A stretch of DNA of 64,000 bases from Candidatus Poribacteria bacterium (GTDB taxonomy: Bacteria > Poribacteria > WGA-4E > JAJDTR01): positions 1 through 64,000 of the forward strand of contig JAPPIK010000024.1 of NCBI GenBank assembly GCA_028820655.1, written 5' to 3'. Both the position numbers and the translations under genes were made by a program. The notes beneath the pieces are model-generated. The model saw only the letters and a program-made list of their open reading frames with translations, had not been told where the DNA came from and searched no databases. Shown here in pieces: positions 22,602 through 54,326 of this stretch. Numbering within the stretch: position 1 is the first letter of the stretch; each line of letters opens with the position of its first letter.

Positions 22602-22674
22602 GGGATTTCTATCGCGCTCGCTATTCACTCGCTTGAGGGATTTCTATCGCGCTCGTTATCCACTCGCTTGATCC
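22602..22674. repeat. Tandem copies of a 35-bp dispersed repeat (CTATCGCGCTCG family)
   Basis: Two direct copies of GGGATTTCTATCGCGCTCG followed by (C/T)TAT(T/C)CACTCGCTTGA, 35 bases apart and differing at two or so positions. Two further single copies lie at about 60734-60772 and 60903-60940. The family is intergenic and its function unknown. Confidence 0.7.
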
Positions 22675-28709: not shown

Positions 28710-29828
28710 TTAAGCCTGAGCTCCGGCGGCTTCGAGGAAGGCAATGGCTTTCGCGCGATTCTTCTCTTGCGCCCGTGCCAACGGCGTTCGCCCCAGTTTG
28801 TCCTTCTGGTTAATCTTGGCGCCATGATCGAGCAGCAACTGCAGCATCTTGTCGCTGGCGCCGAAATGCACCGCCACGTGCAAGCAGTTCTCGCCGTCTT
28901 TGCTCTTGATTTTGTTGGGATCCTGCCCCTTCTCAAGCAGCCAGGTTGCGCCCTTGATGCTGCGGCACGACACGGCGCAGCCGAGCGGAGTGTATCCGCC
29001 GTGATGCTCGGTGCCGCGGGTGCCGTCGAGTTTTCCGCCGTACTGTAGTAGCATTTCCAAGGCGTCGAACTGCCCGTCGCAGGCGGCGTGATTGATGGTG
29101 TCGTCGTCGGCGCACCTGCCCCCAGCCTTGAGGAGCATCTCAAAGACCTCCATGTTGTTGCTGTAGATGGCTAGATCGACGCTGCCGGTGACATCGGCGC
29201 CGTGGTCGATTAACGTCCGCGCTATCTGCGCCAGCCTCTTTCTCTTTTCCTCGCTGTCCCGCCCCACATGCGAGCGTACGCAGTAGTTTAGCGCCGTCCA
29301 CCCCTCGTCGTCCGTCCACAGTTTCGTGCCTTCGTGATGAGCCTTCGCCAAGTCGGGATCGTCCTTCAAAATCGCGTTCACGCGCTCGACGTCGCCGAGC
29401 ACTGCGGCGTGGAAGATGTCGTGCCTCTCGGGCGCATTCTTCAGCAGCGCCGGCAGGAATTCGGTGGCATCGCCGGTGGCGCAGAGCGCGATGGCGCTGA
29501 TGAGCCAGTAGCTGCCGGGCATCAGCGGGTCGGCGCCTGCCTCAAGCAGCAGATCCACGACTTGGTGGTGGCCGTCGTGTTTGGGAGCCGTTTTCTTGAA
29601 TTCCACGGTGCGATGCAACGGGCGGTAGTGGTGCGCCGACTTGGATTTGATGTTCGGATCGGCGCCGTTCTCCAGCAGGAGTGCGACGGCGTCGGCTTGT
29701 CCAACGTAGCAGGCGTCCATGATGGGCTGCCAGTGGACGGCTAGGGATTTGTCCTCGTTGATCATGGCACGCATGGTGTCGAGGTCGCCGCGCGCGGCGG
29801 CGGTGGCGAGCGCTTTTTCGGGTTTCAT
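28710..29828 (-). CDS. Ankyrin-repeat protein
   Basis: 372-residue protein made of about eight to nine ankyrin repeats. Repeat units with ALLLENGADPNIKSK, LLLEAGADPLMPG, TLIDHGADVTG and LLLDHGAKINQKDKLGRTPL are visible. No signal peptide or catalytic domain is present, so it is a cytoplasmic protein-protein interaction module. About 45 bases covering its ribosome site and first codons are repeated at 32793-32840 in front of a dehydrogenase fragment. A second ankyrin protein lies at 44 kb. Confidence 0.9.
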   Translation of the reverse strand: MKPEKALATAAARGDLDTMRAMINEDKSLAVHWQPIMDACYVGQADAVALLLENGADPNIKSKSAHHYRPLHRTVEFKKTAPKHDGHHQVVDLLLEAGADPLMPGSYWLISAIALCATGDATEFLPALLKNAPERHDIFHAAVLGDVERVNAILKDDPDLAKAHHEGTKLWTDDEGWTALNYCVRSHVGRDSEEKRKRLAQIARTLIDHGADVTGSVDLAIYSNNMEVFEMLLKAGGRCADDDTINHAACDGQFDALEMLLQYGGKLDGTRGTEHHGGYTPLGCAVSCRSIKGATWLLEKGQDPNKIKSKDGENCLHVAVHFGASDKMLQLLLDHGAKINQKDKLGRTPLARAQEKNRAKAIAFLEAAGAQA

Positions 29829-29992
29829 TGTTGTATTCTCCTAATCTTTGTTCTTTCTTATGGGCGAACATCAGCGGCAAGTTCGTAGGTTTGTAAGGGA
29901 GTATTTCATTGTCTGTTTGCCCGGCCGATTAAGCCATGAGGGAGAAATCGCGACACGATTAGCCATCCTCTGCTCATAGAGAATCCTTATAC

Positions 29993-30526
29993 CTACTTCC
30001 TCCACAGGTCACGGAAGTTGATTCTCTCTTGGACAATCGGGTGCACCGAGATTTCTTTGTAATTCTCAGCAGGTAGCCGCCCCCCAGGCCTTACGCGCTG
30101 CTTGTCAAACCTTCGACTATACCGTTCAGCGACAATAATGTATTTTACAATTGGCTCCCTGAGGTTGGAAGCGAATTGTAATCTACATACAGAATGAAGG
30201 TATTTCAAATACGGCAGCGATCTCCGTAGCTGTTCCATGCCATCGGATTTGTCTTCATACAAAGTTTTTTTCAATTCAACAAATATGGCATAGTCCCTGT
30301 CACTCTTATTGAAAACAAGCAAATAGTCGCAGGTTTTCATCCAGCTACCATTATTCAAGCCGGAGAGAGATCCGATCTGGCGCATGTCTACCGCCGTAAA
30401 TTGTGGAGGTACTCCGGCTACTTGAACTTTCATTACCGATTCTTCGTTTAAAGTAACTCTCTTTTTCGTCTTTGGCGTTACCAGAGTCTTTGCAGCCAAA
30501 ATCTTTCTGAGATGTGTTGCCAACAC
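29993..30526 (-). CDS. Putative PD-(D/E)XK-like nuclease partner of the upstream ATPase
   Basis: 177 residues, start GTG placed 9 bases after GGAGG, which itself lies at the end of the ATPase gene; the two genes are 4 bases apart. The middle reads KTCDYLLVF (Asp67), then YAIFVELKKT (Glu84-x-Lys86), then a helix MEQLRRSLPYLKYL with Q and Y, the order seen in PD-(D/E)XK nucleases. Glu28/29 could be the motif I acid. I recognise no named family. Together with the ATPase it looks like a two-gene defence module. The catalytic assignment rests on motif reading alone. Confidence 0.6.
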   Translation of the reverse strand: MLATHLRKILAAKTLVTPKTKKRVTLNEESVMKVQVAGVPPQFTAVDMRQIGSLSGLNNGSWMKTCDYLLVFNKSDRDYAIFVELKKTLYEDKSDGMEQLRRSLPYLKYLHSVCRLQFASNLREPIVKYIIVAERYSRRFDKQRVRPGGRLPAENYKEISVHPIVQERINFRDLWRK

Positions 30527-30530
30527 CGTT

Positions 30531-31970
30531 TCATGCCTCCGAATCTTCCGACATCCGTGACGCCAAATCGTTAGCAACCCTGTTAATCTCATCGATAGTT
30601 TCATCAAAGACCGGCATGTCAATACCGAATCTGTCTACATCGCACCGTGTAAGGCTATTGTCCTCCGCGACGTATGCGCGGACAGATTCGGAATCGAGGA
30701 AGTCGTCAGGGCTATATTTCAGCTTCTTTATGACGGCCTCCTTATCCTCAAATGGTCTGCTCAACATGACGAGGTTGTTAATCTCCTTGATGAGATAGTC
30801 GCTGTGAGTGGTTATCAGTACCTTCAAGCCAGCCCGCACGCACCGCGCGAGTAATCGCGCGAGGAGTATCTGGTTGGAGGTATCAAGATGACTTTCCGGC
30901 TCATCAATAATCAGCAAGTGGTTCTTCTTTGCGACGTGCTTTAAGAAGAAATAGAGGTCTACCAATTCACGCGCTGAGGAGGAGGCGAGGTGCAATAGTA
31001 TGTTGAATTTGCCTTCCTGCTTTCGTGTCTTTGATATGAATCGGATATCGTCGCTCGAACTCCCGTAGTAGCCATCCATCATGTCCTTAATGTCGTCGAA
31101 CAGCTTGCTCTCAAAAATCTCGCTTTTTCTCTTCTGTAAATCAGAGATGTCCCTTGTGAAATCAATGTTATCTTTAATTGGAAGAGCATAACGGCTTGTA
31201 GTTCTATCAACAAAAAGAAAGGGAGAGATCCTGTCCGTGTTTTTGTTTTCCCCTAGCTTTTGTAACAGGTCGACCAATTGGTTCTTGGTAAAATCTAGCT
31301 CCTTATAAAAGAGAGAAATGCCAAACCGTTCGGCTGACAAGATGAACGGATCGGGAAGTTGATTGTGGAGCAGGAGCAGAAAGTATTGATGGATAATGTT
31401 GAGTCCAAGATCTGGAATGAGTTGTTGATTCTTTACTTTATTCGTACTTACAACGACATTACTACCGTCGTATTCAATTGAAAGGGAATCACTTTCGCCA
31501 ATCTTCTCTTTGACAACATGGGAACCCTCAGAAATGTCCTCGTTGGGTTTCACGTCGAGGTGGGAGCGATGGAAATCGCTCTGGTAAGCGCTAAACACCG
31601 AAGATAAAGCGTCTTCAGAAAAATTACGGGCTAGTTCCTGAATAACTGTTCTTTGCTGTCGACTGAACTGTTTTCTATCCAAAGGGAAACTAACCCGACC
31701 CTCTCGATTCACTTTATCTGTAATCGAATAAATGTCTGGAAAGTCAACGCAATCATTCGTTACGAGAGCAAGTAAAGCGTCCGTGTCAAGCCATCTTTTC
31801 CACATTTTTAGGAATCCGTAGAGCGTGTAGGCGAGATAAGTCTTGCCAGTGTTGTTTCGACCAGCGATGATTGTGAGATCGCCTAGTTCCAGTTCCGCGT
31901 TCTTTACGGGACCAACATTTTTGAATCGAAATGTTGGAGGTTTATGTTTTTGGCAATCGGTCTTGTTCAT
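30531..31970 (-). CDS. AAA/ABC-type ATPase (AAA_15/AAA_21 class), defence-like
   Basis: 479-residue ATPase of the SMC/ABC-like group that includes OLD, PtuA and AriA. Walker A is GRNNTGKT at residues 37-44, a signature-like segment is LHLASSSARELVDLYFF, Walker B is HLLIIDEPESHLD, and the switch His is in LITTHSDYLIKE. No TOPRIM domain follows, so the effector is probably the small nuclease-like protein encoded next. A GAGGA lies 9 bases upstream of the ATG. Similar two-gene designs act against phage (Septu, PARIS); this pair is not one I can name. Confidence 0.85.
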   Translation of the reverse strand: MNKTDCQKHKPPTFRFKNVGPVKNAELELGDLTIIAGRNNTGKTYLAYTLYGFLKMWKRWLDTDALLALVTNDCVDFPDIYSITDKVNREGRVSFPLDRKQFSRQQRTVIQELARNFSEDALSSVFSAYQSDFHRSHLDVKPNEDISEGSHVVKEKIGESDSLSIEYDGSNVVVSTNKVKNQQLIPDLGLNIIHQYFLLLLHNQLPDPFILSAERFGISLFYKELDFTKNQLVDLLQKLGENKNTDRISPFLFVDRTTSRYALPIKDNIDFTRDISDLQKRKSEIFESKLFDDIKDMMDGYYGSSSDDIRFISKTRKQEGKFNILLHLASSSARELVDLYFFLKHVAKKNHLLIIDEPESHLDTSNQILLARLLARCVRAGLKVLITTHSDYLIKEINNLVMLSRPFEDKEAVIKKLKYSPDDFLDSESVRAYVAEDNSLTRCDVDRFGIDMPVFDETIDEINRVANDLASRMSEDSEA

Positions 31971-32297
31971 TTTCGCTTATCCTCACGCAGTAGATTTCAG
32001 ATGGTTGTTGAAATGTACACGATTTTCAAACAGTCAATTGCGCGTAAGGGGCCATATTCTTGGGACATCCATACTAAACGTTGAAGACGAGGATTTTGTT
32101 GCAGTGCGCTTATGCTGTGGTTAATAAGCAACTTTTAAGGACAAATTTCACATTTTGAGGGCTAGATAGAAGAAAGATTCCCGGTTGCTCCTCTGGATTG
32201 GCAAATCCGACAAATTTCAATCACCACGTAGGTTGGGTTGAACTCAGTGAAACCCAACTATTTGACTATTCGCCGAGAGATCACCAGACAAAACAAC
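31971..32297. other. Intergenic with AACCCAAC repeat
   Basis: No gene. It holds the inverted repeat GTTGGGTT / AACCCAAC (32232-32258), a motif shared with 22.7 and 60.8 kb. It ends at the left edge of the 495-bp direct repeat. Confidence 0.5.
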
Positions 32298-32792
32298 CGT
32301 GGGCTCCCAATCCCTCAATCCACGCGGTACAGCGGTTCCAATCCCGCTGCAATCCGATCCACATTCTCAGCCGACGCCTGTGCCCGTCTCCGCGACGTGC
32401 CGTCGGTCGTACCGGAGGTATGGGGCGTCGCAATTACGTTTGGCAAGCTGAATATCGGCGATGTCACATCGGGCGGCTCCCGGCCGAATGCGTCTAACCC
32501 GGCTCCGCCGATCCACCCCTCCACCAATGCCGCCTCCAGCGCGGATTCGTCCACCAACGCACCGCGGGCGACGTTAATAAAGAACGCCGTCGGCTTCATT
32601 AGGCGCAAGCGGCGCGCATCGATGGTGTGCCGCGTCTTATCGTTAAGGTGCAGATGCAGGGACACGACATCGGACTCCGCGAGCACTTTGTCCTATTCCG
32701 CCGGTCTCCCGGCAAATTCCACGCAGAACTCACGACCCTCGTCCGCTCCGACATCGCGGATGTCGATCGCGGAGATTCTCATTCCGAACGGC
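32298..32792 (-). pseudogene. Broken copy of D-2-hydroxyacid dehydrogenase (left direct repeat)
   Basis: This 495-bp block is a direct copy of 36581-37075, the C-terminal half of the intact dehydrogenase, with no length change. The reading frame covers GMRISAIDIRDVGADE to the stop codon, but a TAG interrupts it in the segment matching GKPADLDKVLAES (here GRPAE-stop-DKVLAES). Over the last 122 residues only about nine differ from the intact protein. The N-terminal half (substrate domain and part of the NAD site) is missing. It is followed upstream by a fragment of an ankyrin-gene start. Confidence 0.88.
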
Positions 32793-32840
32793 GGAGGTGG
32801 CTAGCGCTTTTTCAGGTTTCATTGTGGTTTTCTCCTAGAT
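32793..32840 (-). repeat. Copy of the ankyrin-gene 5' end
   Basis: Minus strand carries a ribosome site, an ATG at 32822 and codons for MKPEKALAT, almost as at the start of the ankyrin gene at 29.8 kb (about 45 bases with a handful of changes). It is joined out of frame to the dehydrogenase fragment. Confidence 0.7.
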
Positions 32841-33008
32841 ATTTATCTTTTTAACTATAGAAGGATGAAGTCCATCAAGATCTTAGGTTTGCATTAAGCC
32901 AACTCTTTGCCCAAGATTCTGTGAAAAGCATAATTACAATCATGGAACATTATGCATACCGCACACTGGCTTTAATGACGTTTACACTTTTGATAGATGG
33001 ATGGTATG

Positions 33009-36000
33009 TCAAACGGAGACCGTTAACTCAGTAGCCAACTCACGATAGCGGCAAAAGGCATTAGCAAGTTCCATCTGCCTCGGCGTGCGACATTCAGGCT
33101 CGAACAATTTCGGAGATGCTACCAAAACACACACACAGCGCGCGCGTGATGTCGCGACATTCAGGCGATTGAGGCTGTAAAGGAACTCCATTCCACGCGG
33201 GGCGTCCTCCGGGGCGGAGGTTGCCATCGAATAAATGACAATTGGTGCTTGCTGCCCCTGAAACTTGTCTACGGTTCCAATTTTTGCCTGTGGCAGTCGG
33301 TCCATAAGTTCGGACACTTGAGCGTTGTAGGGGGTAACAATCAACACGTCGTTCTCGGTTACTGGTTTCGTTTTGCCCTCGTGGTTAGTCCACATGGACG
33401 TGCCATCAATCAGAAGTTGGAACAGATACGCTACAATTTGGGCCTCCTCGGATGAGGAGTTCTGGTTTGCTTCGTGGCATACCGGTACCAAGCGTAGTCC
33501 GGTGCCTGACACTAGACTCTGCGATGCGAGGTTCAGTGTTTCCATTCCATCATGTGGCTTGAGTTTGTTCTGGTAGAAAACCTCAGATGTAAACTTGCAA
33601 ACGTCGGGATGAAGGCGCCAGGTTTCCTCCAAGAACAAACCACGGTCCTCATCGATGGTCTGGTGACCACTGAGCAAATGGGCCAGCGCTGAAACGCCGA
33701 TGCCATCGGGATGGGTTCCCGTTGTAGGCTGCTCCAGTTGCTGTGGATCGCCCAAAAGTACTAGGCTGTCTGCGGCCTGGGATACGGCCAACACGTTGGC
33801 CAGTGACATTTGAGACGCCTCATCGACGAAGAGTACATCTACTGTTCCAACAGCTTCTGGCCGACTCCACAGCCAAGCAGTCCCACCTGCAATTTGAGTG
33901 CGATCTGCTAAGGCGGCGAACACTCCGCCATGGTTCTTTGCTAATTTAATTCGACTTTCACCTTCCACAATCCCTTTTTTCTGCGGCAACTGTATTGCCT
34001 CGACTGGAATCTCCTGCTCGTCAGCAGCTACTATCACTGCGTCCAAGAGATTTCGTATGACCCTGTGGCTGTTCGCGGTAATGCCGACCTTCTTGCCACA
34101 ATGAATTAACTTGGTAATCATCCTTGCACCAATGTAAGTTTTTCCCGAACCGGGCGGTCCCTGGATCGGCAACACTGTAGATTTCAATAGAGGTGCGATG
34201 CGGACCGCCGCCTCCAGAGCAGACTCATCGTCGAGGCGGATGGGCTTGCCTCCTAGTCGGGGCGGCTGTTTCATCAATAAATCTCGTGCCGCGCCGTGGC
34301 TACCGGAACTGGCCATACCGTTGTCGGCGAAATACGTGCCGATTCGCAATATGGACTCAACCAATACATCTGTCGGAACTATGTCGTGGGCATACGCCGC
34401 GAGAGGGTGTATGAGGGCTGTATCCTGTCGTTTTTTAATCTGGACGGTCTGTGTTTGGAAGTCAATTGCCTCCAGAGTGCCAAATGGCTCCCCTCCAACA
34501 CTGCGCAAAGGCTCGCCACCCCTGAGTTCGGTTTCTTGGTGGTCGAACTTGTATTTGTGCACCGGGGCCCGATCCGTACCACCTACAGTGTCTACGAAGA
34601 CAAGACCGGCAAGAGCAGCCCGTTCTCCGATTAACTCATGAGCGGGCAATTCAGCAAGTCTGAAATGTTCCCACCAAATGGCCTTGTTTTCCCGACGGTG
34701 CCAGTCCAAGATGTTGGCCAATATCCACCTAGCTTGTTCTTCAATCGTGCGTGATTCAGGGGCGGAAGGAACTTCACCAGCAATTTTCTCGGATAAAACT
34801 TCGACTTTCTCCTGGAATTCGATTACTCCATCCGAGGCTTCCCCAACCCCAAGGACTGGTCTTTCAATGACCTTGCCCTCGTCAATGAGCGTGGCGCGGA
34901 TCCGTTCTAGCCAATCTCGAAGGTGTAGAGTTGAAAGACAATCGTCTCTATTGTATCGCTCGACGGTGTCCCTATGCTCATCACTGATAGCATCTGAGTC
35001 GTCGAGTTCAAGGGCATATTGCACGCTGAAGAGGGAGCGATTTGCCTCGTCCAATGGCACGGAACGCTGGAAGTTATAGAATGTCTCCAAACATTTAATG
35101 GAGTAACTTTCGACGCTGGCTCGAATGCTGTCGCGTACCACTCGATGAAGGTCGACAAATAGACCGGCTCTGAGCATCATATCGACTTCTTCCTCATGGG
35201 TTGCATAGCGTCCCATCAACCGTTTCATTGCTCCTGTTTCGTAGGAGGAAAAATGGTAGATGTGCATGTTGGGATTCTGCTTCCACTGTTCCATCAACCA
35301 GTCAACTAAGCAGACAAAACCGTTCCTTTCTTCCTCTCTAGATAATGCCCAAAAGGATTTGTATTCGTGATTGTTGACACCGCTAGCAGCGACGAGACCT
35401 AACAGATATTCCAAACCGCCATCTCCGACGAAAGGGTTGCTCTCAAAATCCAGAAACACGTCCCCAGTCGACGGAGCAGGTAATAAATTCAATCCGTAGT
35501 CTGGCTCCAGTTCCAACACTTCGAAAACAGGCAGGTTGTTTTTCCGACCTTCCACTTGAATACGCGCCTGTTCACGGCGCCGCTCGTAACTCTGTACGGC
35601 ACCATGCTCAGGAATCCAAGTAAGAGGGAGAGGCTCGACTGCGAAGGCTTCTGTGGTAGAAATACCACGTGCCTCTAGTTCTCGCCTCTGTAGCTTCGAA
35701 ATGCCCGCCACCAAACAGAGATGATCGTCGTCCCTCCAACGCTGGTCGCACTGATGATGCCAACGACAATTGTTGCAGTGTGGATTGGGTTCCGGGTAAG
35801 TACCGGTAAGTATCTCCAGTTCACACGCTCGTTCCAAGCTACTCCGGACTAGCCGGTAATAGGCGGCGTAGTCATTGGTCCGGAACGAATGCGGATGAAA
35901 CCGCGATCCAGGTGTCACAACATGCATCTTCTCTGGGCATTTGCCCTGAACCGCTTTCACTAGATCGGAGTATAGAGACAATTGAAGAACTGCCCCGCCC

Positions 36001-36419
36001 TTTGTCTCACGAGAGAGTTTAGTGTCATAGATTTCGTACGACCAATCGCCCAGTTGACTATGAGCGTCAACTCGCCGCAAGATGTCAGGATGCCCGCACC
36101 AATGACCTTCGGCTAGACCTCCCTGAATGATAACCTCAGCACCGGCTTGCATAGCTGCAACCGTTTGCTCCATTTTCTGCTCTTCGTTGCCGTCGGCAAT
36201 GCTCGTTATCTCCAGGCCTTGCGAATTCAGGTGCCGGATGTACGCCTCTTCGTGTGCAATCCCCCGCTTCACCATCAGGTCTAAATTCGGGTCATAGACA
36301 GATGGAGGTGAGATTAAACCAGACGCCATTTCGGCATTTAAGAACGTCAAATGGTGGCAACTCAGATAATTCACTAGGTCGGTAGCGGTAAGGCGAAGCG
36401 AGTTTTCAAGAGAATACAT
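33009..36419 (-). CDS. TM0106-like RecB-type nuclease fused to UPF1/Dna2-like helicase
   Basis: 1136-residue multidomain protein. Residues about 1-240: RecB-like nuclease with IYDTKLSRETKGGAVLQLSLY and an Fe-S-type Cys ending (PHCNNCRWHHQC), as in TM0106 and Cas4-like proteins. About 300-520: RNase H-like exonuclease with DVFLDFESNP and the later YNRDDCLSTLHLRDWL (DExD pattern). About 720-1136: SF1 helicase with Walker A IQGPPGSGKTYIGA, LFVDEASQMS, LGDPQQLEQPTTG and VDKFQGQQAPIVIYS. Proteins of this architecture are thought to process DNA ends, and some lie in defence islands. It is the only gene between two 495-bp direct repeats. Confidence 0.87.
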   Translation of the reverse strand: MYSLENSLRLTATDLVNYLSCHHLTFLNAEMASGLISPPSVYDPNLDLMVKRGIAHEEAYIRHLNSQGLEITSIADGNEEQKMEQTVAAMQAGAEVIIQGGLAEGHWCGHPDILRRVDAHSQLGDWSYEIYDTKLSRETKGGAVLQLSLYSDLVKAVQGKCPEKMHVVTPGSRFHPHSFRTNDYAAYYRLVRSSLERACELEILTGTYPEPNPHCNNCRWHHQCDQRWRDDDHLCLVAGISKLQRRELEARGISTTEAFAVEPLPLTWIPEHGAVQSYERRREQARIQVEGRKNNLPVFEVLELEPDYGLNLLPAPSTGDVFLDFESNPFVGDGGLEYLLGLVAASGVNNHEYKSFWALSREEERNGFVCLVDWLMEQWKQNPNMHIYHFSSYETGAMKRLMGRYATHEEEVDMMLRAGLFVDLHRVVRDSIRASVESYSIKCLETFYNFQRSVPLDEANRSLFSVQYALELDDSDAISDEHRDTVERYNRDDCLSTLHLRDWLERIRATLIDEGKVIERPVLGVGEASDGVIEFQEKVEVLSEKIAGEVPSAPESRTIEEQARWILANILDWHRRENKAIWWEHFRLAELPAHELIGERAALAGLVFVDTVGGTDRAPVHKYKFDHQETELRGGEPLRSVGGEPFGTLEAIDFQTQTVQIKKRQDTALIHPLAAYAHDIVPTDVLVESILRIGTYFADNGMASSGSHGAARDLLMKQPPRLGGKPIRLDDESALEAAVRIAPLLKSTVLPIQGPPGSGKTYIGARMITKLIHCGKKVGITANSHRVIRNLLDAVIVAADEQEIPVEAIQLPQKKGIVEGESRIKLAKNHGGVFAALADRTQIAGGTAWLWSRPEAVGTVDVLFVDEASQMSLANVLAVSQAADSLVLLGDPQQLEQPTTGTHPDGIGVSALAHLLSGHQTIDEDRGLFLEETWRLHPDVCKFTSEVFYQNKLKPHDGMETLNLASQSLVSGTGLRLVPVCHEANQNSSSEEAQIVAYLFQLLIDGTSMWTNHEGKTKPVTENDVLIVTPYNAQVSELMDRLPQAKIGTVDKFQGQQAPIVIYSMATSAPEDAPRGMEFLYSLNRLNVATSRARCVCVLVASPKLFEPECRTPRQMELANAFCRYRELATELTVSV

Positions 36420-36580
36420 TAGTTATTTCCTTTATGACATTTTCGTATGAAACTTCGTAAGCCCCATTATAATCTGCTTCTTAATTTTTGGAATTTTTCG
36501 TTATCGTTTCAAGATCGCATTCGCCTATGTACACCGCGGATTTCGCCACTGTGCTTCAATAGGGCGCTAGACTGGAAAGG

Positions 36581-37075
36581 CGTGGGCTCCCAATCTCTCA
36601 ATCCACGCGGTAGAGCGGTCCGAGTCCAGCGGCGACCCGATCCACATTTTCTGCCGACGCCTGTGCCCGTCGTCGCGACGTGCCGTCGGTCGTACCGGAG
36701 GTATGGGGCGTCGCAATCACATTTGGCAAGCCGAAAATCGGCGACGCCACATCGGGCGGCTCCCGGCCGAATGCGTCTAACCCGGCTCCACCGATCCGCC
36801 CCTCCACCAATGCCTCCTCCAGCGCGGCCTCGTCCACCAACGCTCCGCGGGCGACGTTAATCAAGAACGCCGTCGGCTTCATTAGGCGCAAGCGGAGTGC
36901 ATCAATAGTGTGCCGCGTCTTATCGTTTAGGTGCAGATGCAGGGACACGACATCGGACTCCGCGAGCACTTTATCCAGATCCGCCGGTTTCCCGGCAAAT
37001 TCCACGCCGAACTCGCGCATCTCGTCCGCTCCGACATCGCGGATATCAATCGCGGAGATTCTCATTCCGAACGGC
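36581..37075 (-). repeat. Right 495-bp direct repeat
   Basis: C-terminal half of the intact 2-hydroxyacid dehydrogenase plus 17 downstream bases. The left copy lies at 32298-32792 in the same orientation; the two flank 3.8 kb holding the nuclease-helicase gene. Confidence 0.85.
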
Positions 37076-37581
37076 AGCGCGCGGCGCGCCAACTCAGTCC
37101 CGCTGGCGCCGAAACCGACGATCCCCAATTTCAACCCCTCAAGCTCACGTCCCATGGGCACATACATCTCACCGGCTTTGAGATTTTCCTGTGTAACAGG
37201 ATACTTTCGCGCGAGCATTAGAATGAACATGATGGCGCATTCCGCCAGAGCGACGGCGCTGAAAAGTCCGGGGGTGTTCGCCACGGGAATCTTCTTGGAT
37301 TGCCAGTAGCCCAATTCGAAATGGTCGATCCCCGTGCCCAGAATCTGCCATAGACGCACCTTCCCCGCGGCTATGTCAGCCATCTCTCTGGTTCCCGCCG
37401 AACCGCCTTGGTCAATCACGACCTCAACCCCTTCGAACTGCGGAGCGAGGGGCTGGCTATAATCCAAGATACGCAGATTGTGGCGGTCGCCGACGGCAGC
37501 CACCACGTCCTCGCCCCACGGTTTAAACATCGAGGGACCGAGCGGATGGGGTAAAAACAGAACGTTCAGTTTTTTGGGCAT
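36598..37581 (-). CDS. D-2-hydroxyacid dehydrogenase family protein
   Basis: 327-residue NAD-dependent dehydrogenase of the D-isomer family. The Rossmann motif is LGIVGFGASGTELARRALPFG, the catalytic Arg lies in LINVARGALVDE, the Glu in LDAFGREPP and the His in VIATPHTSGTTD. Substrate unknown (phosphoglycerate, hydroxypyruvate or another 2-hydroxyacid). The ATG coding MPKKLNVLFL was chosen because GGAGA lies 6 bases upstream. Its C-terminal half is duplicated as the left repeat. Confidence 0.92.
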   Translation of the reverse strand: MPKKLNVLFLPHPLGPSMFKPWGEDVVAAVGDRHNLRILDYSQPLAPQFEGVEVVIDQGGSAGTREMADIAAGKVRLWQILGTGIDHFELGYWQSKKIPVANTPGLFSAVALAECAIMFILMLARKYPVTQENLKAGEMYVPMGRELEGLKLGIVGFGASGTELARRALPFGMRISAIDIRDVGADEMREFGVEFAGKPADLDKVLAESDVVSLHLHLNDKTRHTIDALRLRLMKPTAFLINVARGALVDEAALEEALVEGRIGGAGLDAFGREPPDVASPIFGLPNVIATPHTSGTTDGTSRRRAQASAENVDRVAAGLGPLYRVD

Positions 37582-37667
37582 CGCTATCTCCATTGGTCAT
37601 AAAGTCGCACAATAGGTTCCTGCCGACAATTAGTCGTGATACGCCGTTCAGTTTCTCCACCGAGGCG

Positions 37668-38414: not shown

Positions 38415-38540
38415 GAGCAACTACCTCCCTTATGTAGAAGTGATTTTGTTGCAGTTTTCTCCGGCCGAGTCAACCTTTCTCTGGCGTGCGACAAGTGAGG
38501 CTCAACCGAGCGGACAGTTTTAGCGGTCGAACAGAAAGAG

Positions 38541-38570
38541 AAACCGAGTTTTGAGGAAAAAACTGGGTTT
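38541..38570. repeat. AAACCGAGTTTT hairpin repeat
   Basis: Inverted repeat AAACCGAGTTTT / AAAACTGGGTTT with one mismatch; it covers the stop codon of the VOC gene. Same family as 6186-6218 and 40087-40118. Confidence 0.6.
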
Positions 38571-39988: not shown

Positions 39989-40086
39989 ATTTGAAGTTGC
40001 CTTTTCCGAGAATACAGTTTAGAACCTGTTTGAATAGTGCGATTTGTAGGGAGCACACTGCGCACTCTACAGAATTGTGCCAGAAA

Positions 40087-40118
40087 GAAACCGAGTTTTG
40101 AAGAAAACACTCGGTTTC
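40087..40118. repeat. GAAACCGAGT hairpin repeat
   Basis: 10-bp perfect inverted repeat GAAACCGAGT / ACTCGGTTTC; third copy of the family, between the SRPBCC gene and the AlkD-like gene. Confidence 0.7.
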
Positions 40119-43489: not shown

Positions 43490-43903
43490 TTAGGATGCGG
43501 CGAGCACCTGCCAGTTGATGCCGAATTTGTCCGTGCAGGCGCCAAAGTAGTCGCCCCAGAACGCATCATCCATCGGCCATTTCACCGCTCCGCCATCCGA
43601 CAGTTTGGCGAAGATTTCGTCGGCATGTTCTCTGCTGTCCGCCCGGAAGGAGATCGCGAAGTTGTCTCCGACCACGGGCGGAGGACCGAACGCTGAACAG
43701 CCGTCGCTGCCCATCAGAACGTTTGATCCGATCGGAAGCGATACGTGCATGATACGGTCAAGCTCCGCCTCCGGGATGGTCATGCCTTCCGGACCGTCTC
43801 GGTACGTCATAAGGGCTAGAAACTCGCCGCCGAAGATGGAACGATAGAATTCGAAAACCTGGCGGCAGTTATCGTCAAAGGTTAGGTAGGTGTTGAGTGA
43901 CAT
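43490..43903 (-). CDS. PhnB-like VOC protein
   Basis: 137 residues: SLNTYLTFDDNCRQVFEFYR, SIFGGEFLALMTYRDGPEG and FGACTDKFGINWQVLAAS at the end. Close paralogue of the protein at 46.9-47.4 kb (same order of motifs and near-identical ends). Function unknown. Confidence 0.92.
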   Translation of the reverse strand: MSLNTYLTFDDNCRQVFEFYRSIFGGEFLALMTYRDGPEGMTIPEAELDRIMHVSLPIGSNVLMGSDGCSAFGPPPVVGDNFAISFRADSREHADEIFAKLSDGGAVKWPMDDAFWGDYFGACTDKFGINWQVLAAS

Positions 43904-44031
43904 TAATTCCTCCAGAAAAATGTGCTAGAATCCAATGATGCACAGGAGTATACCATAATGGCGGTGTGGAGGGCAACGCAGCCACGGTGAACTGAGACAA
44001 CGATGGGCGCTGCGTGGCGTAAACTGACAAG

Positions 44032-46949: not shown

Positions 46950-47372
46950 TCAGTCTTGCGACAGCCCGGTGGTCACATGCCAGTTGATGCCGAATTTGTC
47001 GGTAAATGCGCCGAAATATGCACCCCAGAACATATCGTCCATCGGGCAGGTTACCACGCCGCCCTCGGACAGCTTGGCGAAAATCTCGTCCGCATGCTCT
47101 CTGCTCTCCGCTTCGAAGGTGATTGAGAAGTTGTTCCCCGGGACGAGAGGGGGACTGAACGACGAGCTGCTGTCGTTGCCCATCAGAACGCTCGATCCGA
47201 TCGGAAGTGAAACGTGCATGATACGGTCAAGCTCCGCTTCCGGGACCTCCAAGCCTTCGGGCCCGTCGCGGAACGTCGAGATAAATGTGAACTCGCCGCC
47301 GAAGACGGAGCGGTAGAAGTCGAACACTTCGCGGCAGTTGTCTTCAAAGGTTAAGTAGGTGCTGAGTGACAT
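46950..47372 (-). CDS. PhnB-like VOC protein
   Basis: 140 residues: SLSTYLTFEDNCREVFDFYR, FGGEFTFISTFRDGPEGLEV, and FGAFTDKFGINWHVTTG. Close paralogue of the protein at 43.5 kb; the two probably arose by duplication within this cluster. Confidence 0.92.
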   Translation of the reverse strand: MSLSTYLTFEDNCREVFDFYRSVFGGEFTFISTFRDGPEGLEVPEAELDRIMHVSLPIGSSVLMGNDSSSSFSPPLVPGNNFSITFEAESREHADEIFAKLSEGGVVTCPMDDMFWGAYFGAFTDKFGINWHVTTGLSQD

Positions 47373-47544
47373 TGAATTCTCCTAATAAAGGGTGATTGTT
47401 TTTGTGAATTGGTATGATACCTAATGGCGAGGGGGAAGTGCAAGGCGGTTTGCATAAGGCGGGAATTGATTGGAGGCGTTCATACCGGGAAATTTGCGCG
47501 ACAGATTTGTCAGCAGAAACCCTTCGGGGAAGGAGCGATCGGAT

Positions 47545-48279
47545 TCAATAGCGCCAATCTTCGTGAGCCAGTGGCGCCCGGTTAAGTTCATCCCTATAGA
47601 TGCGCCATTGTGGAATAAAGTTGTCCATCAACTCGCGAAACCGGTCATTATGGCGGCGCTCAAGCAGGTGCACCATTTCGTGAACGAGGATGTATACCAG
47701 ACATGACCTCGGTTTCTTCGCCAGTTCGAGATTGAGCCAGATACGTCTCGCTTCAATATTACAGGAACCCCAGAGCGTTTTCATTTTCTTGATTCGGACA
47801 TCTTCGACGGTTACCCCCAGCTTCGGTTCCCATTTGGCGATGAGCGGCGGCAATTGCCTACGAAGATGGCGGCGATACCAGCCGTGAAGAACCGCTTCGC
47901 GTGCCTCTCGGTCAGAGTTCGGGCGCAGGGCTAGTTCGAGCCTCGTGTTGTTGCGCAGTTTAACCGCCGCCGGGGCATCGCGCTCAACCACATCAAGGCG
48001 GTAGCGCCGACCTTCAAAATAGTGGCTCTCGCCGGTGATGAATTCACGCTGAGATTGACGTACCTGCCGCTCAAACTCCCCTCGCTTCCGGCGAATCCAT
48101 CCCAGGCGGGAGACGACGGCGAGGCGCACTGTCTCATCATCAAGTAGTAACGGCGCCGCCACGCGAACCCGTCCGCTGGGTGGATAGACGCCGACATGGA
48201 GGTTCTTAATCTCCTTGCGGACGATTTCTACCGGTATTCCCGAGACTTCTATGCGGTGATTGTCAATTTTGGTACTCAC
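47545..48279 (-). CDS. YgjP/DUF45-type M48-like metallopeptidase
   Basis: 244 residues of the COG1451 group. Zinc motif HEMVHLLERRH (HExxH) is in the C-terminal third, preceded by LWGSCNIEARRIWLNLELAK. The gene starts 17 bases inside hsdR's 3' end (shared strand), so it forms part of the restriction operon; such metallopeptidases often sit beside type I restriction genes. Its target is unknown. Confidence 0.88.
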   Translation of the reverse strand: MSTKIDNHRIEVSGIPVEIVRKEIKNLHVGVYPPSGRVRVAAPLLLDDETVRLAVVSRLGWIRRKRGEFERQVRQSQREFITGESHYFEGRRYRLDVVERDAPAAVKLRNNTRLELALRPNSDREAREAVLHGWYRRHLRRQLPPLIAKWEPKLGVTVEDVRIKKMKTLWGSCNIEARRIWLNLELAKKPRSCLVYILVHEMVHLLERRHNDRFRELMDNFIPQWRIYRDELNRAPLAHEDWRY

Positions 48280-51200
48280 CTTGGTTTTTCACAATCTCGA
48301 AGAGAGGATCGACGTCAACGGCGTAATCACCAAATTCTTCTGCGATGACCCGAGCCATGGCTAAGCGTACTTTCCGCTCTTTGATCGTGTGTCCTCTCCA
48401 ATCGTCTTCCCTTGAATTGAGGATAGCCTCATCCAATGCAACTGCCATCTGCTCTCTGATTTCTCGGTTTCGGGGGCTTTCGTTTTGACCTCCTGATTCT
48501 GCAATCTCCGAATCGCCGATTAAATTTATATTGTCGAATATAGACCGTAACGCTCCGGTGTTGATTCGCGGAGGATAAGGCGTATCAGTTTGTCCTTCAA
48601 TCCGCCGTGCTAGAGCCACGATTTTGTTCAAATACGCCCGGTATTCGATTGCTCCCTGTCTTCGCTCGCGGATTAGGTCATCAAGCAAGACTGACATTTG
48701 TTCGTAATACCGAGGATTGACCGGTGTCCGGTCGATAATCAGCCGACGGACGTTGTGTTCAATCGCTTCCGCCGCCGCTCTTTCGCTCCTCCGAATCCCG
48801 TCGGGCAACGCGTTAACAGCGTCTTCACCGCGTTGGACAATCAGTTCCACCAGAGTCAAGTCGTCGAACTCTGAAAGCGTCTCGCTCTCCTCTGCCCTAA
48901 TGTAGGTGTCCAGCAGGTGACGCATGGCAGGTTCATAAACCTTGAGGTCAATGTAATCGCCACTCGCCAATTTGACCTCCTGGCGTACATTCTCGTAGTG
49001 ACCGACCTCGTCTTTTATCTCCTGTGCCTCGGCATCACTGTAGCCTGCATCGCTCATTTCGTTCGCCAGATTGGCGTATGCCCGCAATAACCCGGCGACT
49101 GACTTATAAAGGGTTAGGCGCTTCTGTTCATTGGCTTTTAGTTGATCAGCGTTGCCGCTCTCCTCGGCGCAAAAGAAGCGCAGATATGACTCCGTGTTCG
49201 GTGGTGGCTCGACCGGTTCGCAGAGCGCTTTGACCGCCTCACGTGCCTCCTCAAGGCGTTCCCGACCTTTATCAAGCCTGTTCTCCAGCAGTCCCTGGAC
49301 GTCTTCGGTGTCGTAGTCGGCAAAGGCTTCTCCCGTATAGTCGGCAATCGATTTCTCCAAGGAGCGGAACAGGTCCTTGTAGTCGATAATATAGCCGTAA
49401 TCTTTGTCTTCGCCGTGGAGGCGGTTGACCCGGCAGATTGCCTGAAACAGACCGTGGTCCTGCATCTTCTTATCAATGTAGAGGTACGTTGCCGGCGGGG
49501 CATCGAAACCGGTGAGAAGTTTGTCCACCACAATCAGAAGCTTCATCTGCCCCGGCTCCTCGACGAAACGCTTCTTGACCTGCTGCTCGAATTGCTCGAC
49601 CTTGTGCATGGCGGTGTCTTCCGATTCGTTGAAATGCTCCGCGAGCATCCTCCGGTAAATATCAAACTGGAGTAATTTTTCTGTTGATCCTTCGCCGGTT
49701 TCTTCTCCCGTGATGGCGGACGGAGATGGACGGTAAGAGGTCACGATGGCGCATTTGCCCTGCAGAGGCGATCCCTGAAACATTTCGAATAACCGACAGG
49801 CGGCGTAGATGCTATCGGAAACCAGGAGGGCGTTGCCGCGATTGTCTGCCAAGCGATCAAATCGTTCCATGTCCATCAGAATGTCATCGACGATCTGATT
49901 CAACCTACCCCTCGAACTCAATACTCGCTGCATCGTGCCCCAGCGCTGTCGGAGTTGCGCCTTCGCCAGATCGGTCAACCCTCGAGTTTTTATTTCAAAC
50001 CACTCATCGATTCGCTCTTGCGATGTGATGAGTTGGTCAATGTCACGCGCTTCATAACGCAGGTCAAGCACGACCTCGTCTTCTACAGCCTCGTCGTATT
50101 TGTAGGTGTGGATGTAGGGACCGAAGGTTTGAATACTCTGCGGCTTGTCTCGCTTGAGCAGCGGGGTACCCGTGAAGCCGATTAGCATTGCCTCCGGTAG
50201 AATAGCCTTCATCGCCCTGTGGAGTTTGCCCGATTGCGTGCGGTGGCATTCGTCCACGAAGACGAAAAACTCGCCGCGGGGCTGAAAATCCTCGGGCAGA
50301 TTCTGCTTGATTTCTTCAATGAATTCCTCCACGTCTCGGTCACTGATTTCTCCCGATGCGCCGAACTTGTGGATTAGCGAACAGATCAACCACTTCGTGG
50401 TGTCGTTGAGCGCGCCTACCAAGTCAGCGCCGCTCCGAGTGCGGTAGATGTCCTCGTTCACACCCGTGAAAACCTTCTCAATCTGTTCATCCAGTTCGGT
50501 GCGGTCGGTGATGATTAACACGCGACTGGGGGGTATGTTCTCGCGGATCCATTTCGCCAGCCAGACCATGGTCAGGCTCTTTCCGCTGCCTTGGGTGTGC
50601 CAGATGATGCCGCCCTCCCGCTTCTTTACGCGCGCTTGTGCCGACTTCACGCCGAAATACTGGTTATGACGACAGATTTTCTTGGTTCCGGCATCGAAAA
50701 CAATGAAGTCATGCAGAAGTTCAAGAATTCGTTCCTTGTTACAAACTTGGCGCAATTCTCGGAGTAGCGGATTGCCGTCCTCTATATCGTCTGATTCCTT
50801 CCAGCGCAGCCAATGTTTCTCCGGCGTCTCAATCACACCGTATCGCAGTCCTTCGCTCTCGTTCCCAGCCATGATGAGTTGCACCGTGGAGAAGAAGTGA
50901 CGGATGAATCCCGATCGTTGGTTGCCGAGGTTCTGGCGGATGCCCTCGGAAACCGATACCGTGGAACGCTTCAACTCGACAACGCCAAGTGCGATTCCGT
51001 TGACGTAGAGCACGATGTCGGGCCGCTTGGTGTTTTCCGCGACAACGGTCACCTCCTCGGCGATGCCGAAGTGGTTGTTTGTCGGGTTCTTCCAGTCGAT
51101 TAGCCAGACGGTCTGATGGCGCTCACCGGCTTCGGGTTGGATCTTCACGCCGTATCGGAGCAGTCCGTAAACCTCGCGGTTTGCGTCGTAGAGTTTCCTG

Positions 51201-51424
51201 TTCCCGCCGACGGCAGCGGCCTTGCGTACTTCAAACAGGGTTCTTTCAATGATTTGCGCCCTGTGCCCCTGACTCTCCAGCCAGTTAGTAAGGTATTCGG
51301 CCTCGACATTGCTATTTCCAGGACGATCCTTCCAATTGCCAAGACCTTCATAGCCAAGGACACTCACGAAGAACGCAAGCACGCGCCGCTGAGTGAAGAA
51401 TTCCTGTTGTCCAACCGTGTTCAT
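48263..51424 (-). CDS. hsdR: Type I restriction endonuclease subunit R (HsdR)
   Basis: 1053 residues, near the 1038 of EcoR124 HsdR. N-terminal nuclease with RPDIVLYVNGIALGVVELKR (Asp...Glu-x-Lys). Two RecA-like motor domains: HTQGSGKSLTMVWLAKWI, ITDRTELDEQI, VFVDECHRTQSGK, LIGFTGTPL, and later LLIVVDKLLTGFDAP. It translocates DNA and cuts at a distance. It is separated from hsdM/hsdS by the other defence genes, yet all lie on one strand. Confidence 0.95.
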   Translation of the reverse strand: MNTVGQQEFFTQRRVLAFFVSVLGYEGLGNWKDRPGNSNVEAEYLTNWLESQGHRAQIIERTLFEVRKAAAVGGNRKLYDANREVYGLLRYGVKIQPEAGERHQTVWLIDWKNPTNNHFGIAEEVTVVAENTKRPDIVLYVNGIALGVVELKRSTVSVSEGIRQNLGNQRSGFIRHFFSTVQLIMAGNESEGLRYGVIETPEKHWLRWKESDDIEDGNPLLRELRQVCNKERILELLHDFIVFDAGTKKICRHNQYFGVKSAQARVKKREGGIIWHTQGSGKSLTMVWLAKWIRENIPPSRVLIITDRTELDEQIEKVFTGVNEDIYRTRSGADLVGALNDTTKWLICSLIHKFGASGEISDRDVEEFIEEIKQNLPEDFQPRGEFFVFVDECHRTQSGKLHRAMKAILPEAMLIGFTGTPLLKRDKPQSIQTFGPYIHTYKYDEAVEDEVVLDLRYEARDIDQLITSQERIDEWFEIKTRGLTDLAKAQLRQRWGTMQRVLSSRGRLNQIVDDILMDMERFDRLADNRGNALLVSDSIYAACRLFEMFQGSPLQGKCAIVTSYRPSPSAITGEETGEGSTEKLLQFDIYRRMLAEHFNESEDTAMHKVEQFEQQVKKRFVEEPGQMKLLIVVDKLLTGFDAPPATYLYIDKKMQDHGLFQAICRVNRLHGEDKDYGYIIDYKDLFRSLEKSIADYTGEAFADYDTEDVQGLLENRLDKGRERLEEAREAVKALCEPVEPPPNTESYLRFFCAEESGNADQLKANEQKRLTLYKSVAGLLRAYANLANEMSDAGYSDAEAQEIKDEVGHYENVRQEVKLASGDYIDLKVYEPAMRHLLDTYIRAEESETLSEFDDLTLVELIVQRGEDAVNALPDGIRRSERAAAEAIEHNVRRLIIDRTPVNPRYYEQMSVLLDDLIRERRQGAIEYRAYLNKIVALARRIEGQTDTPYPPRINTGALRSIFDNINLIGDSEIAESGGQNESPRNREIREQMAVALDEAILNSREDDWRGHTIKERKVRLAMARVIAEEFGDYAVDVDPLFEIVKNQGEYQN

Positions 51425-51442
51425 GTCGCTGCTCTCATCGGG

Positions 51443-53008
51443 TCATTTGCGCCATGCCAACAGTATATCTTGCAAGCTTTCCACAAGCGGCTGAATGTCG
51501 CTCTCTTTGCGCTCAGCCTCTAGGCGCGCTACCACCCGGCAGACCTCCGGCGCTTCTCTGTTGAGATGTTCACACAAGCTGCTAAATTTGGATTTGGCGA
51601 TCTCTTGTGGAGAATCGGATGCCGTGTCATAAACGGCATCTACCTGATTCATTAAGCTGGATAGATTGACTTGAGTCGTACCTAGATGTACGGAGTCGAC
51701 ATCCGAAGAATCCCGCAATTTCTCCCACACCCACGTTTCCGGTGCACCGTCGCCGGGAAGAAACAGTACGAAAACGGCGTCTCCAGCCGATCTGTGAATT
51801 CTCGACTCTATTGGGCTGCCACGCTGGTCGCCATCAAGGACGAATACGGTATTTTGAATTTGACCGAATTTCCTTAACGCTTGAGCGTGGGACGGAAACT
51901 CACTCGCGCCGGTGTCGCGCCCGATGTGAACCGATTCCCAATTGATTCCTTCTCTGGGCAACAAGAAATCAAATACCCCCTTTAGGATACATTCAGCCGA
52001 TTCGTCTTCGCAAAGCACCTTGAGCGCTTCAGTAGCGCGCCCATAGAGGGCATTCTGGACCACGTCGCGATAGGGTGGGCGGACCACAACCTTTCCCGAC
52101 GGTTCGTCGCGGTCAAGGAAGATGCGAGCGTGGGGGGGCACCGCGTCCAAGACAACCGGGCTGTGGGAGGTTACGATAATCTGGAGGTTGTTGCGGAGGG
52201 CAAGTTGCTGCAAATGCAGCATGAGAAGCTGCTGTACCCAGGGGTGGAGGCCGGCTTCGACTTCGTCAATCAGCACGAGGGCACTATCAAGTTGAGTGAT
52301 TTCTCCCGACAGCCGCAGGAGGGCGCGCTCCCCGGCAGCCATGTGCAATTCGGAGTACGCCGCGCCGCCTTCCCGGGCGGCAAAGAGCAAGGTTTTGTTG
52401 CTTTTGGTTCTGCTGTCCTCAGACAGATTGACGACTTCCGAGTATCTGAAGGGCAGCATATGATGGACGAACTCAATCTGGGATGCGGTGAAGCGCCTTA
52501 TTCGCGGTTCAGACTTGAGGCGCGACATCCGGAGAACACTGCGCACCTCGGATGGGTTGCTCAGATTGCTGAGGGTACGGAGGTACACTTGACGTTCCGG
52601 CTGGCTGACGTTTTTGCGTCCGAAAAAGCTACGCCCCCACCCCTTGGATCGCTGCCACTGCATCGAGAGGCGACCGTCTGGAGTCAGATAATGGAACTGC
52701 ATCGTGATTTTTCGCCGCGCATCCTGGTGTTCACCCAGCTTGGGGCGATAGTCGGGCAACAACGTAGATGGGAAGAAATCCCTTGCTCCGGCTTCGGGTA
52801 CCTTGTAGGCGCAGGCGGCGGCAAAGAGCACTGTTGATTTACCGGTGGCGTTTCCGCCGGCGATGACGCTCACCGGATAATCGAACATCACCCGCAAACT
52901 GTCGAAGCCCCGAATACCGTCCAGGTGAATCTCCGACAGGAATTGCTGGAGATGTGGTTTCTTGCCCTGTAACTGGTCCCAGAGGTTTCTTAGGCGTTTT
53001 TCAATCAC
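51443..53008 (-). CDS. OLD-like ATPase with C-terminal TOPRIM domain
   Basis: 521 residues. ATPase part: Walker A GGNATGKS at residues 51-58, signature-like LHMAAGERALLRLSGEIT, Walker B ALVLIDEVEAGLHPW, switch IIVTSHSPVVLD. C-terminal TOPRIM-like part: LCEDESAECILKGVFDFL (conserved acidic Glu) and NTVFVLDGDQRGS (DxD). OLD nucleases act against phage (Gabija GajA is one). It lies 19 bases beyond hsdR's start, upstream of it, within the restriction locus, so it is probably a defence partner. Confidence 0.85.
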   Translation of the reverse strand: MIEKRLRNLWDQLQGKKPHLQQFLSEIHLDGIRGFDSLRVMFDYPVSVIAGGNATGKSTVLFAAACAYKVPEAGARDFFPSTLLPDYRPKLGEHQDARRKITMQFHYLTPDGRLSMQWQRSKGWGRSFFGRKNVSQPERQVYLRTLSNLSNPSEVRSVLRMSRLKSEPRIRRFTASQIEFVHHMLPFRYSEVVNLSEDSRTKSNKTLLFAAREGGAAYSELHMAAGERALLRLSGEITQLDSALVLIDEVEAGLHPWVQQLLMLHLQQLALRNNLQIIVTSHSPVVLDAVPPHARIFLDRDEPSGKVVVRPPYRDVVQNALYGRATEALKVLCEDESAECILKGVFDFLLPREGINWESVHIGRDTGASEFPSHAQALRKFGQIQNTVFVLDGDQRGSPIESRIHRSAGDAVFVLFLPGDGAPETWVWEKLRDSSDVDSVHLGTTQVNLSSLMNQVDAVYDTASDSPQEIAKSKFSSLCEHLNREAPEVCRVVARLEAERKESDIQPLVESLQDILLAWRK

Positions 53009-53060
53009 GAATGACGAACTCCTTCAAACCGATTCGGCAATGTTGTTGATTGGGAGATTC

Positions 53061-53837
53061 TCAGATATACTGACCTAAATACACGCCAATCTCTTCCCGA
53101 TTTTCGTAAAAACAGGGAAACTGAAACTGTTTCTCGCACACGGCGTCGAAGCGTGCCAATACGTTGCGACTGTTAGCCTTTCTATCTTCAAAGATGCCCA
53201 GTGGAAGGAATGGCATTTCCCATGCTTTGAACTGTTGCAGCGCAATTGTAGCGTCCCTGACCCTAGTGTTACTGTGGAGACCGTACACCAACAGCGGTTG
53301 AGGCATCCCGTTGATTCGACAATCTACCGGGTATATTCCTTCGGTATCATTGTCCGGGTGGCGCCAGTTAAAATTCATGCGTGGCACCGGAACATTTTCA
53401 TATAGTAGTGTTTGAAAGTCATTTATGAATGTAGATTGGACATTTTGCGTTGACAAGCACAACACATCACCGATTTTTACAAGCGCTTGAGCAAATGAGT
53501 ATAACGCATCACCAAAGCGCGCGTCGCGAACCTTAAAAATCAATTCCCCGAAACGATCTTCAACCTTAAACGTAGACAGGGCGTTTAGAATGATTTTGTG
53601 CCGCCTCCCTCTAAATAATTTCTTTTCACTAATATCGTAGGTAAGGTGCATGTAGGTATGCCCTTCGTCCGAAAGCATCCAACCTGTCCGTTCTTTTTTT
53701 AGAACAATGGTTATGTGGTCACCGTCGTCAAACCGGAAAGGGGTAAACACACGAAAACGGTCTCTGCCATCGGGTAAAACCCGAATCTTTGCCGAGACTT
53801 TATCAATAAAGTCTTGCTCTATAGATTTTATCGACAT
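53061..53837 (-). CDS. DUF1828-domain protein
   Basis: 258 residues. N-terminal segment FTPFRFDDGDHITIVLKKER, WMLSDEGHTYMHLTYDISEK matches DUF1828; the second half (VYGLHSNTRVRDATIALQQF) resembles DUF1829. No catalytic motif is visible to me. It is 12 bases downstream of the DUF6978-like gene, on the same strand, forming a pair inside the defence island. Confidence 0.78.
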   Translation of the reverse strand: MSIKSIEQDFIDKVSAKIRVLPDGRDRFRVFTPFRFDDGDHITIVLKKERTGWMLSDEGHTYMHLTYDISEKKLFRGRRHKIILNALSTFKVEDRFGELIFKVRDARFGDALYSFAQALVKIGDVLCLSTQNVQSTFINDFQTLLYENVPVPRMNFNWRHPDNDTEGIYPVDCRINGMPQPLLVYGLHSNTRVRDATIALQQFKAWEMPFLPLGIFEDRKANSRNVLARFDAVCEKQFQFPCFYENREEIGVYLGQYI

Positions 53838-53849
53838 TGCTTATCCCTC

Positions 53850-54326
53850 CTAAAATAAGGCGTCCTGTAACGCATAAGGGTCTTCAAAATTTGCATCTGC
53901 AAAGAGACATTTCAAAGCACCGTTCACATCATTATAGCGTTTTGTCGATTCAGCGTAATCTTCCTCTCTTGTCCCATTTATCTGGTATTTCTCTGTCGCG
54001 GTGTGAATGTGAAACCCCTCCACTTCTTGCTCTTCAATTGTGTTGGTGTGTAAATGGTAGTCACCATTGTAGCGTTTAAGTCGAAAAAGATTCTTCGGCG
54101 GGGGAACCTTGACGCCTAAGATAACCGAAAAGTTTAGCTTGTTAAAAATACTCATTCTAACAATAACTTGGAATTCGTTCTTCCTTTCTCCGGTTGCATT
54201 TAGACGATATACGTCATTTCCGCGATTCTTTGTTCTTCTAAATTTACTACGCTTATTGTCTGGTAATACCTTGCGTTCCTGTATCAACGCTGCGATTTCC
54301 CGATCTGTATACGTGATATCCATCAA
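53850..54326 (-). CDS. DUF6978-like protein, unknown
   Basis: 158 residues. From memory it resembles DUF6978: TYTDREIAALIQERKVLPDN, VKVPPPKNLFRLKRYNGDYH, FHIHTATEKYQINGTREEDY, and NGALKCLFADANFEDPY at the end. There are conserved His in HLHT and FHIHT. Function unknown. It precedes the DUF1828 gene by 12 bases. Confidence 0.65.
   Translation of the reverse strand: MMDITYTDREIAALIQERKVLPDNKRSKFRRTKNRGNDVYRLNATGERKNEFQVIVRMSIFNKLNFSVILGVKVPPPKNLFRLKRYNGDYHLHTNTIEEQEVEGFHIHTATEKYQINGTREEDYAESTKRYNDVNGALKCLFADANFEDPYALQDALF

What the first reader, a model, noticed from the sequence alone, without database searches (positions are those of the whole stretch)
32298..37075. 495-bp direct repeats flank the nuclease-helicase gene
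The blocks 32298-32792 and 36581-37075 are direct copies of equal length. The right one is within an intact dehydrogenase gene; the left one is broken by a TAG and cut off at its N-terminal end. Only the 1136-residue nuclease-helicase gene lies between. This suggests insertion of the unit by homologous exchange or tandem duplication followed by decay.
Basis: seen in the sequence. Interest (0 to 1): 0.65.

Follow-up and report, generated by a model that had tools for sequence, protein, structure and literature searches.

The report
Two defence-gene slots joined in tandem
The repeat is the leftover seam where two differently loaded copies of one defence-gene slot in a Poribacteria chromosome were joined end to end, so the cell now carries two probable anti-virus systems where relatives carry another set; it is a clear example of a known kind of genome rearrangement rather than a new element.

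Summary
The repeat is real: 32298-32792 and 36581-37075 match at 452/495 positions without gaps. The right copy is the tail of an intact 2-hydroxyacid dehydrogenase. The left is a relic (codons 174 to stop, TAG at codon 206).

The relic is fused, through a 4-bp overlap (GCCG), to a second relic: the start of the ankyrin-repeat gene whose intact copy lies at 28710-29828. The region is therefore two versions of one slot in tandem: ank / PD-T4-4-like system / dehydrogenase tail // ank head / TM0106-type nuclease-helicase / dehydrogenase.

A congener (Candidatus Poribacteria JAJDTR01) has one intact ank, one intact dehydrogenase, and different cargo between them (SIR2, long pAgo, NsnA fragment). 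A genome of another family has relatives of the nuclease-helicase, PD-T4-4 and NsnA at the syntenic place, inside a defence island.

The left copy is as far from the right copy as from the congener's gene. It evolved mostly under purifying selection (omega 0.23; omega = 1 rejected, P = 0.003), so it was not a truncated duplicate from birth. I favour joining of two diverged alleles, homologous on one side and illegitimate on the other. Local tandem duplication with complementary loss remains the main rival.

The parts
28710..29828 (-). intact ankyrin-repeat gene (372 aa), left border of the slot
   Evidence: Ank_2 1.9e-34; congener orthologue 93% aa
29795..29860 (-). start and upstream of the intact ank gene; partner of the ank relic
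   Evidence: 85% match to 32789-32853
29993..30622 (-). cargo A, gene B (209 aa), PD-T4-4_B / PDC-M47B-like
   Evidence: PADLOC 3.4e-10 (PDC-M47B) and 3.6e-6 (PD-T4-4_B); 49% to the G004 neighbour of PD-T4-4_A
30531..31970 (-). cargo A, gene A (479 aa), AAA_15/AAA_21 ATPase, PD-T4-4_A-like
   Evidence: PADLOC PD-T4-4_A 1.5e-111; 69% to G004
32298..32792 (-). dehydrogenase relic: codons 174 to stop plus 17 bp, TAG at codon 206 (32693-32695)
   Evidence: 452/495 to 36581-37075; codon alignment
32789..32792 (.). junction of the two relics (about these bases), 4-bp overlap GCCG on the minus strand, frames not matched
   Evidence: three-way alignments; chance of at least 4 bp about 0.016
32789..32853 (-). 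ank relic: start codon, first ~11 codons and upstream region
   Evidence: 85% to 29795-29860; 87% to congener 7472-7525; alignment
33009..36419 (-). cargo B: TM0106-family RecB-like nuclease fused to SF1 helicase (1136 aa)
   Evidence: TIGR03491 1.2e-77; AAA_12 1.6e-25, RNase_H_2 8e-18; Walker A GPPGSGKT at residue 754, DEAS at 866
36581..37075 (-). right copy of the repeat
36598..37593 (-). intact D-2-hydroxyacid dehydrogenase (331 aa), right border of the slot
   Evidence: 2-Hacid_dh_C 2.1e-50; congener orthologue 95% aa

Best explanation
The locus between an ankyrin-repeat gene and a 2-hydroxyacid dehydrogenase gene is a slot that holds exchangeable defence genes. This genome carries two versions of the slot joined head to tail. 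One version held a PD-T4-4-like two-gene system, the other a TM0106-type nuclease-helicase. Shown: two slots' worth of parts lie in order, with a seam made of a dehydrogenase tail fused to an ank head, and a congener has one slot with other cargo. Inferred: DNA carrying a diverged allele of the slot entered from another lineage, recombined homologously at one border, and was joined illegitimately through a 4-bp overlap at the other. Instead of replacing the resident system, this added the second one and left the seam as decaying relics. The repeat itself has no function.
For: Both border genes are duplicated as fragments exactly at the seam. The congener has single intact borders and wholly different cargo: SIR2, long pAgo and an NsnA fragment. 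A genome of another family carries the nuclease-helicase (63%), PD-T4-4_A (69%), PD-T4-4_B (49%) and NsnA relatives at the syntenic position, with the nuclease-helicase on the ank side. The left copy is equidistant from the right copy and the congener (each 91.1% over 474 nt; right against congener 92.2%), and the three-way tree is unresolved. Codon ML: omega 0.066 for the intact genes and 0.23 for the relic; omega = 1 rejected at P = 0.0028 with free branch length and 1e-5 under a clock. The junction overlap is 4 bp.
Against: No genome with a proposed single-slot donor or recipient allele (ank / PD-T4-4 / dehydrogenase or ank / nuclease-helicase / dehydrogenase) was found. Fourfold-site divergence from the congener shows no distinct donor tract beside the seam. 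The tree test excludes none of the three placements. The codon test rests on 474 nt and about 23 changes on the relic branch, with the stop codon left out. Tandem duplication would give the same layout.
Confidence: 0.6

Rival explanations
1. Local tandem duplication. A segment from ank codon ~11 to dehydrogenase codon 174 was duplicated in place through the 4-bp overlap, leaving both border genes intact. The two copies of an ancestral island then lost complementary cargo: the nuclease-helicase from one, PD-T4-4 from the other.
For: The layout is exactly what one such duplication gives. In G004 the nuclease-helicase sits on the ank side and PD-T4-4 at the far end, so each relic still has its ancestral-like neighbour.
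Against: The left copy would be truncated from birth and should evolve neutrally, but omega = 1 is rejected (P = 0.0028; 1e-5 under a clock). A cruder count test is only borderline (P 0.04-0.065). No remnant of the complementary cargo was found in either half. A variant in which both genes were first duplicated whole and cut later is not excluded.
Confidence: 0.28
2. Assembly chimaera: two strains' alleles of the slot were wrongly joined in a metagenome assembly.
For: The genome is a draft in 61 contigs, the congener's record is titled as a MAG, and the two halves look like alleles.
Against: The parts share only 4 bp at the seam, far below any assembler's word length (inference). The left copy carries a stop codon and excess amino-acid changes, so it is an aged relic and not a live strain allele. 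The contig is 271 kb.
Confidence: 0.06
3. The nuclease-helicase is a mobile element or composite transposon bounded by the 495-bp repeats.
For: Direct repeats flank one gene that the congener lacks.
Against: No transposase or integrase was seen among the genes examined at the locus. The repeat is coding sequence of a border gene, diverged by 8.7%, and the left copy adjoins a second border-gene relic. The G004 homologue sits near ank, and G004 has no dehydrogenase at that place.
Confidence: 0.03

Closest known systems
Chromosomal defence islands / core defence hotspots (e.g. PMC10250203, PMC10121019)
   Same: Fixed border genes with different defence cargo in relatives
   Different: Poribacteria locus found here by comparing three genomes; one genome carries two slots in tandem with relics of both borders at the seam
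Homology-facilitated illegitimate recombination (PMC3240628; Prudhomme 2002 and de Vries and Wackernagel 2002 as cited in PMC5361080)
   Same: One border homologous, the other joined illegitimately, adding sequence
   Different: Inferred here from one product; no donor and no experiment
Sequential displacement producing immunity-gene arrays in Vibrio T6SS clusters (PMC5361080)
   Same: Incoming module anchored by homology adds to the old one and leaves fragments of displaced genes
   Different: Defence cargo instead of effector-immunity pairs; seam made of both border genes

Membership tests
Defence hotspot with fixed borders | same borders in relatives | tested here: met
   ank and dehydrogenase intact in the congener; ank side and right flank syntenic in G004, but no dehydrogenase there
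Defence hotspot with fixed borders | different defence cargo between the borders | tested here: met
   PADLOC: PD-T4-4 here; SIR2 + pAgo + NsnA fragment in congener; Hma, Nsn and PD-T4-4 genes in G004
PD-T4-4 two-gene system | both genes A and B adjacent | tested here: met
   A 1.5e-111; B weak, 3.6e-6 (PDC-M47B 3.4e-10)
PD-T4-4 two-gene system | protection against phage | not testable with these tools
   needs expression and infection assays
TM0106-family RecB-like nuclease (TIGR03491) | match above the curated cut-off | tested here: met
   261.8 bits against 97.45
Mokosh (MkoA/MkoC) | near full-length match to MkoA or MkoC | tested here: not met
   only the helicase C-terminal part matches (about residues 865-1121)
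Homology-facilitated illegitimate recombination product | short-overlap junction on one side | tested here: met
   4-bp overlap
Homology-facilitated illegitimate recombination product | homologous crossover on the other side, visible as a donor tract | tested here: inconclusive
   no divergence outlier along the window against the congener
Transposon or composite element | transposase or integrase and element-type ends | tested here: not met
   none among the genes examined; the repeats are border-gene coding sequence

The most novel reading that the evidence does not exclude
A defence slot kept at the same place across two Poribacteria families gains systems by joining of diverged alleles rather than by mobile elements, and the dehydrogenase/ank seam records one such addition event, with a measurable working-gene and pseudogene phase.
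Probability: 0.45. Interest if true: 0.55.

Novelty: new member of a known kind. Interest (0 to 1): 0.4.

Why it matters
How chromosomal defence islands grow without a mobile element is seldom visible in sequence. Here the seam of one addition event survives, with relics of both border genes, and relatives show the slot in other states. It also places a TM0106-type nuclease-helicase, for which no role is established here, in a defence island in two Poribacteria families, which makes it a candidate for testing.

Tried and rejected
Mobile element: no recombinase among the genes examined, and the repeat is coding sequence of a border gene. Remnants of the complementary cargo in the four spacers: none found. 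Placement of the left copy by tree and AU test: unresolved (a partitioned run timed out). Donor tract by fourfold-site divergence: no signal. Mosaic structure within the repeat: weak and post hoc (Fisher P = 0.03), not relied on. A palindrome next to the left copy (32229-32258) as a family of repeats: the pattern search found no match in the window, and its arm words occur only singly elsewhere. Scan of GTDB genome contigs for further alleles: only the known congener and one 75% relative.

Full report
Observation. The blocks 32298-32792 and 36581-37075 are direct copies with 452 of 495 bases identical and no gaps. A search of the window's own genome found no third copy. The right block is the 3' part of an intact D-2-hydroxyacid dehydrogenase gene (36598-37593, minus strand) plus 17 bp past its stop. 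The left block starts at codon 174, has a TAG at codon 206 and otherwise keeps the frame to the normal stop.

The 65 bp beside the left block (32789-32853) match the start and upstream region of the ankyrin-repeat gene at 28710-29828 (85%). In gene orientation the seam reads: ank upstream, ATG, about 11 codons, then dehydrogenase codon 174 onward. The two parts overlap by GCCG and their reading frames do not match. Between random sequences an overlap of at least 4 bp has a chance of about 0.016. All genes here lie on the minus strand. In gene orientation the order is dehydrogenase, nuclease-helicase, [ank head | dehydrogenase tail], PD-T4-4-like ATPase, PD-T4-4-like second gene, ank. That is two slots in tandem, each bounded by the same two genes.

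Cargo. The 1136-aa protein is a TM0106-family RecB-like nuclease (TIGR03491, 1.2e-77) with an SF1 helicase C-terminal part. PADLOC finds only partial matches to Mokosh and Dpd helicases, so it is not filed as a named defence system. The other slot holds an AAA ATPase matching PD-T4-4_A over its length (1.5e-111) and a small neighbour weakly matching PD-T4-4_B.

Relatives. The only congener held (G001, Candidatus Poribacteria JAJDTR01) is syntenic on both sides. It has one ank and one dehydrogenase, both intact, and between them a SIR2_2 protein, a pAgo and a truncated NsnA-like gene. The SIR2_2 and pAgo pair resembles the BPAS type described in PMC10620215. A genome of another family in the order (G004) is syntenic over radical SAM, ank and VOC genes on one side and the window's 38569-60423 genes on the other. 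Between them lie the nuclease-helicase (63% aa), HmaABC-like genes, NsnABC-like genes and PD-T4-4 A and B (69% and 49%). G004 has no dehydrogenase at this place. The nuclease-helicase is otherwise rare: 3 of 73 genomes of the order at E <= 1e-100.

Age and history of the left copy. Over the shared 474 nt the left copy is 91.1% identical to the right copy and 91.1% to the congener, while right and congener share 92.2%. No placement is excluded by the AU test. Changes on each branch from the majority ancestor (nonsynonymous, synonymous) are right 5, 15; congener 3, 17; left 12, 11. A codon model gives omega 0.066 for the two intact genes and 0.23 for the left copy. Omega = 1 for the left copy is rejected (P = 0.0028 with free branch length, 1e-5 with equal time for left and right), and equality with the intact genes is marginally rejected (P = 0.046). 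A cruder count test against neutrality is only borderline (P 0.04-0.065). The left copy therefore most likely spent most of its separate history as a working gene and then decayed. A duplicate truncated at birth does not predict this. An allele that diverged in another lineage, or a duplicate first kept whole, does.

Mechanism. The simplest account is that an allele of the slot from a related lineage was taken up, paired by homology at one border and was joined through a 4-bp overlap at the other, adding its system to the resident one. This is the pattern of homology-facilitated illegitimate recombination (PMC3240628), and an analogous process has been proposed for Vibrio immunity-gene arrays (PMC5361080). 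I could not show the donor tract or find either single-slot allele. Tandem duplication with complementary loss gives the same layout, and the G004 order fits it; I rate it 0.28. Which half is the incomer is not determined.

Verdict. A real and instructive rearrangement scar in a defence island, of a known kind. The repeat has no function of its own. Interest is moderate: the seam preserves an addition event, and the locus puts a poorly known nuclease-helicase in a defence setting.

Noticed in passing
48263-60423: Type I restriction-modification genes (hsdR, hsdS, hsdM) further along the same flank; orthologues in G004 (56-63%), while the best congener match to hsdR is only ~27%, so this is a second variable defence block.
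   Followed up: partly
43505-43913 and 46974-47382: Second direct repeat in the window (80%): two glyoxalase/3-dmu-9_3-mt-type genes, both also present in the congener, so an older paralogous pair.
   Followed up: partly
L021 10938-11459: In the congener, a 173-aa NsnA-like gene covers only about residues 155-298 of the 498-aa G004 homologue; likely a relic of a lost Nsn system.
   Followed up: partly
22602-22671 and 60734-60769: A ~35-bp repeat present in tandem and dispersed, also in the congener and G004.
   Followed up: no
38539-38570 and 40086-40117: 32-bp repeats starting AGAAACCGAGTTTTGA, 91% alike, between genes.
   Followed up: no
L040 (G065 contig 347): A 51% homologue of the nuclease-helicase next to sigma-70-like, Hsp70 and Schlafen AlbA_2 genes and a NO VEIN C-terminal-domain gene, a different context.
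   Followed up: partly
L024: A 75% dehydrogenase relative on a contig binned as Acidimicrobiia (VFZK01); may be transfer or misbinning.
   Followed up: no
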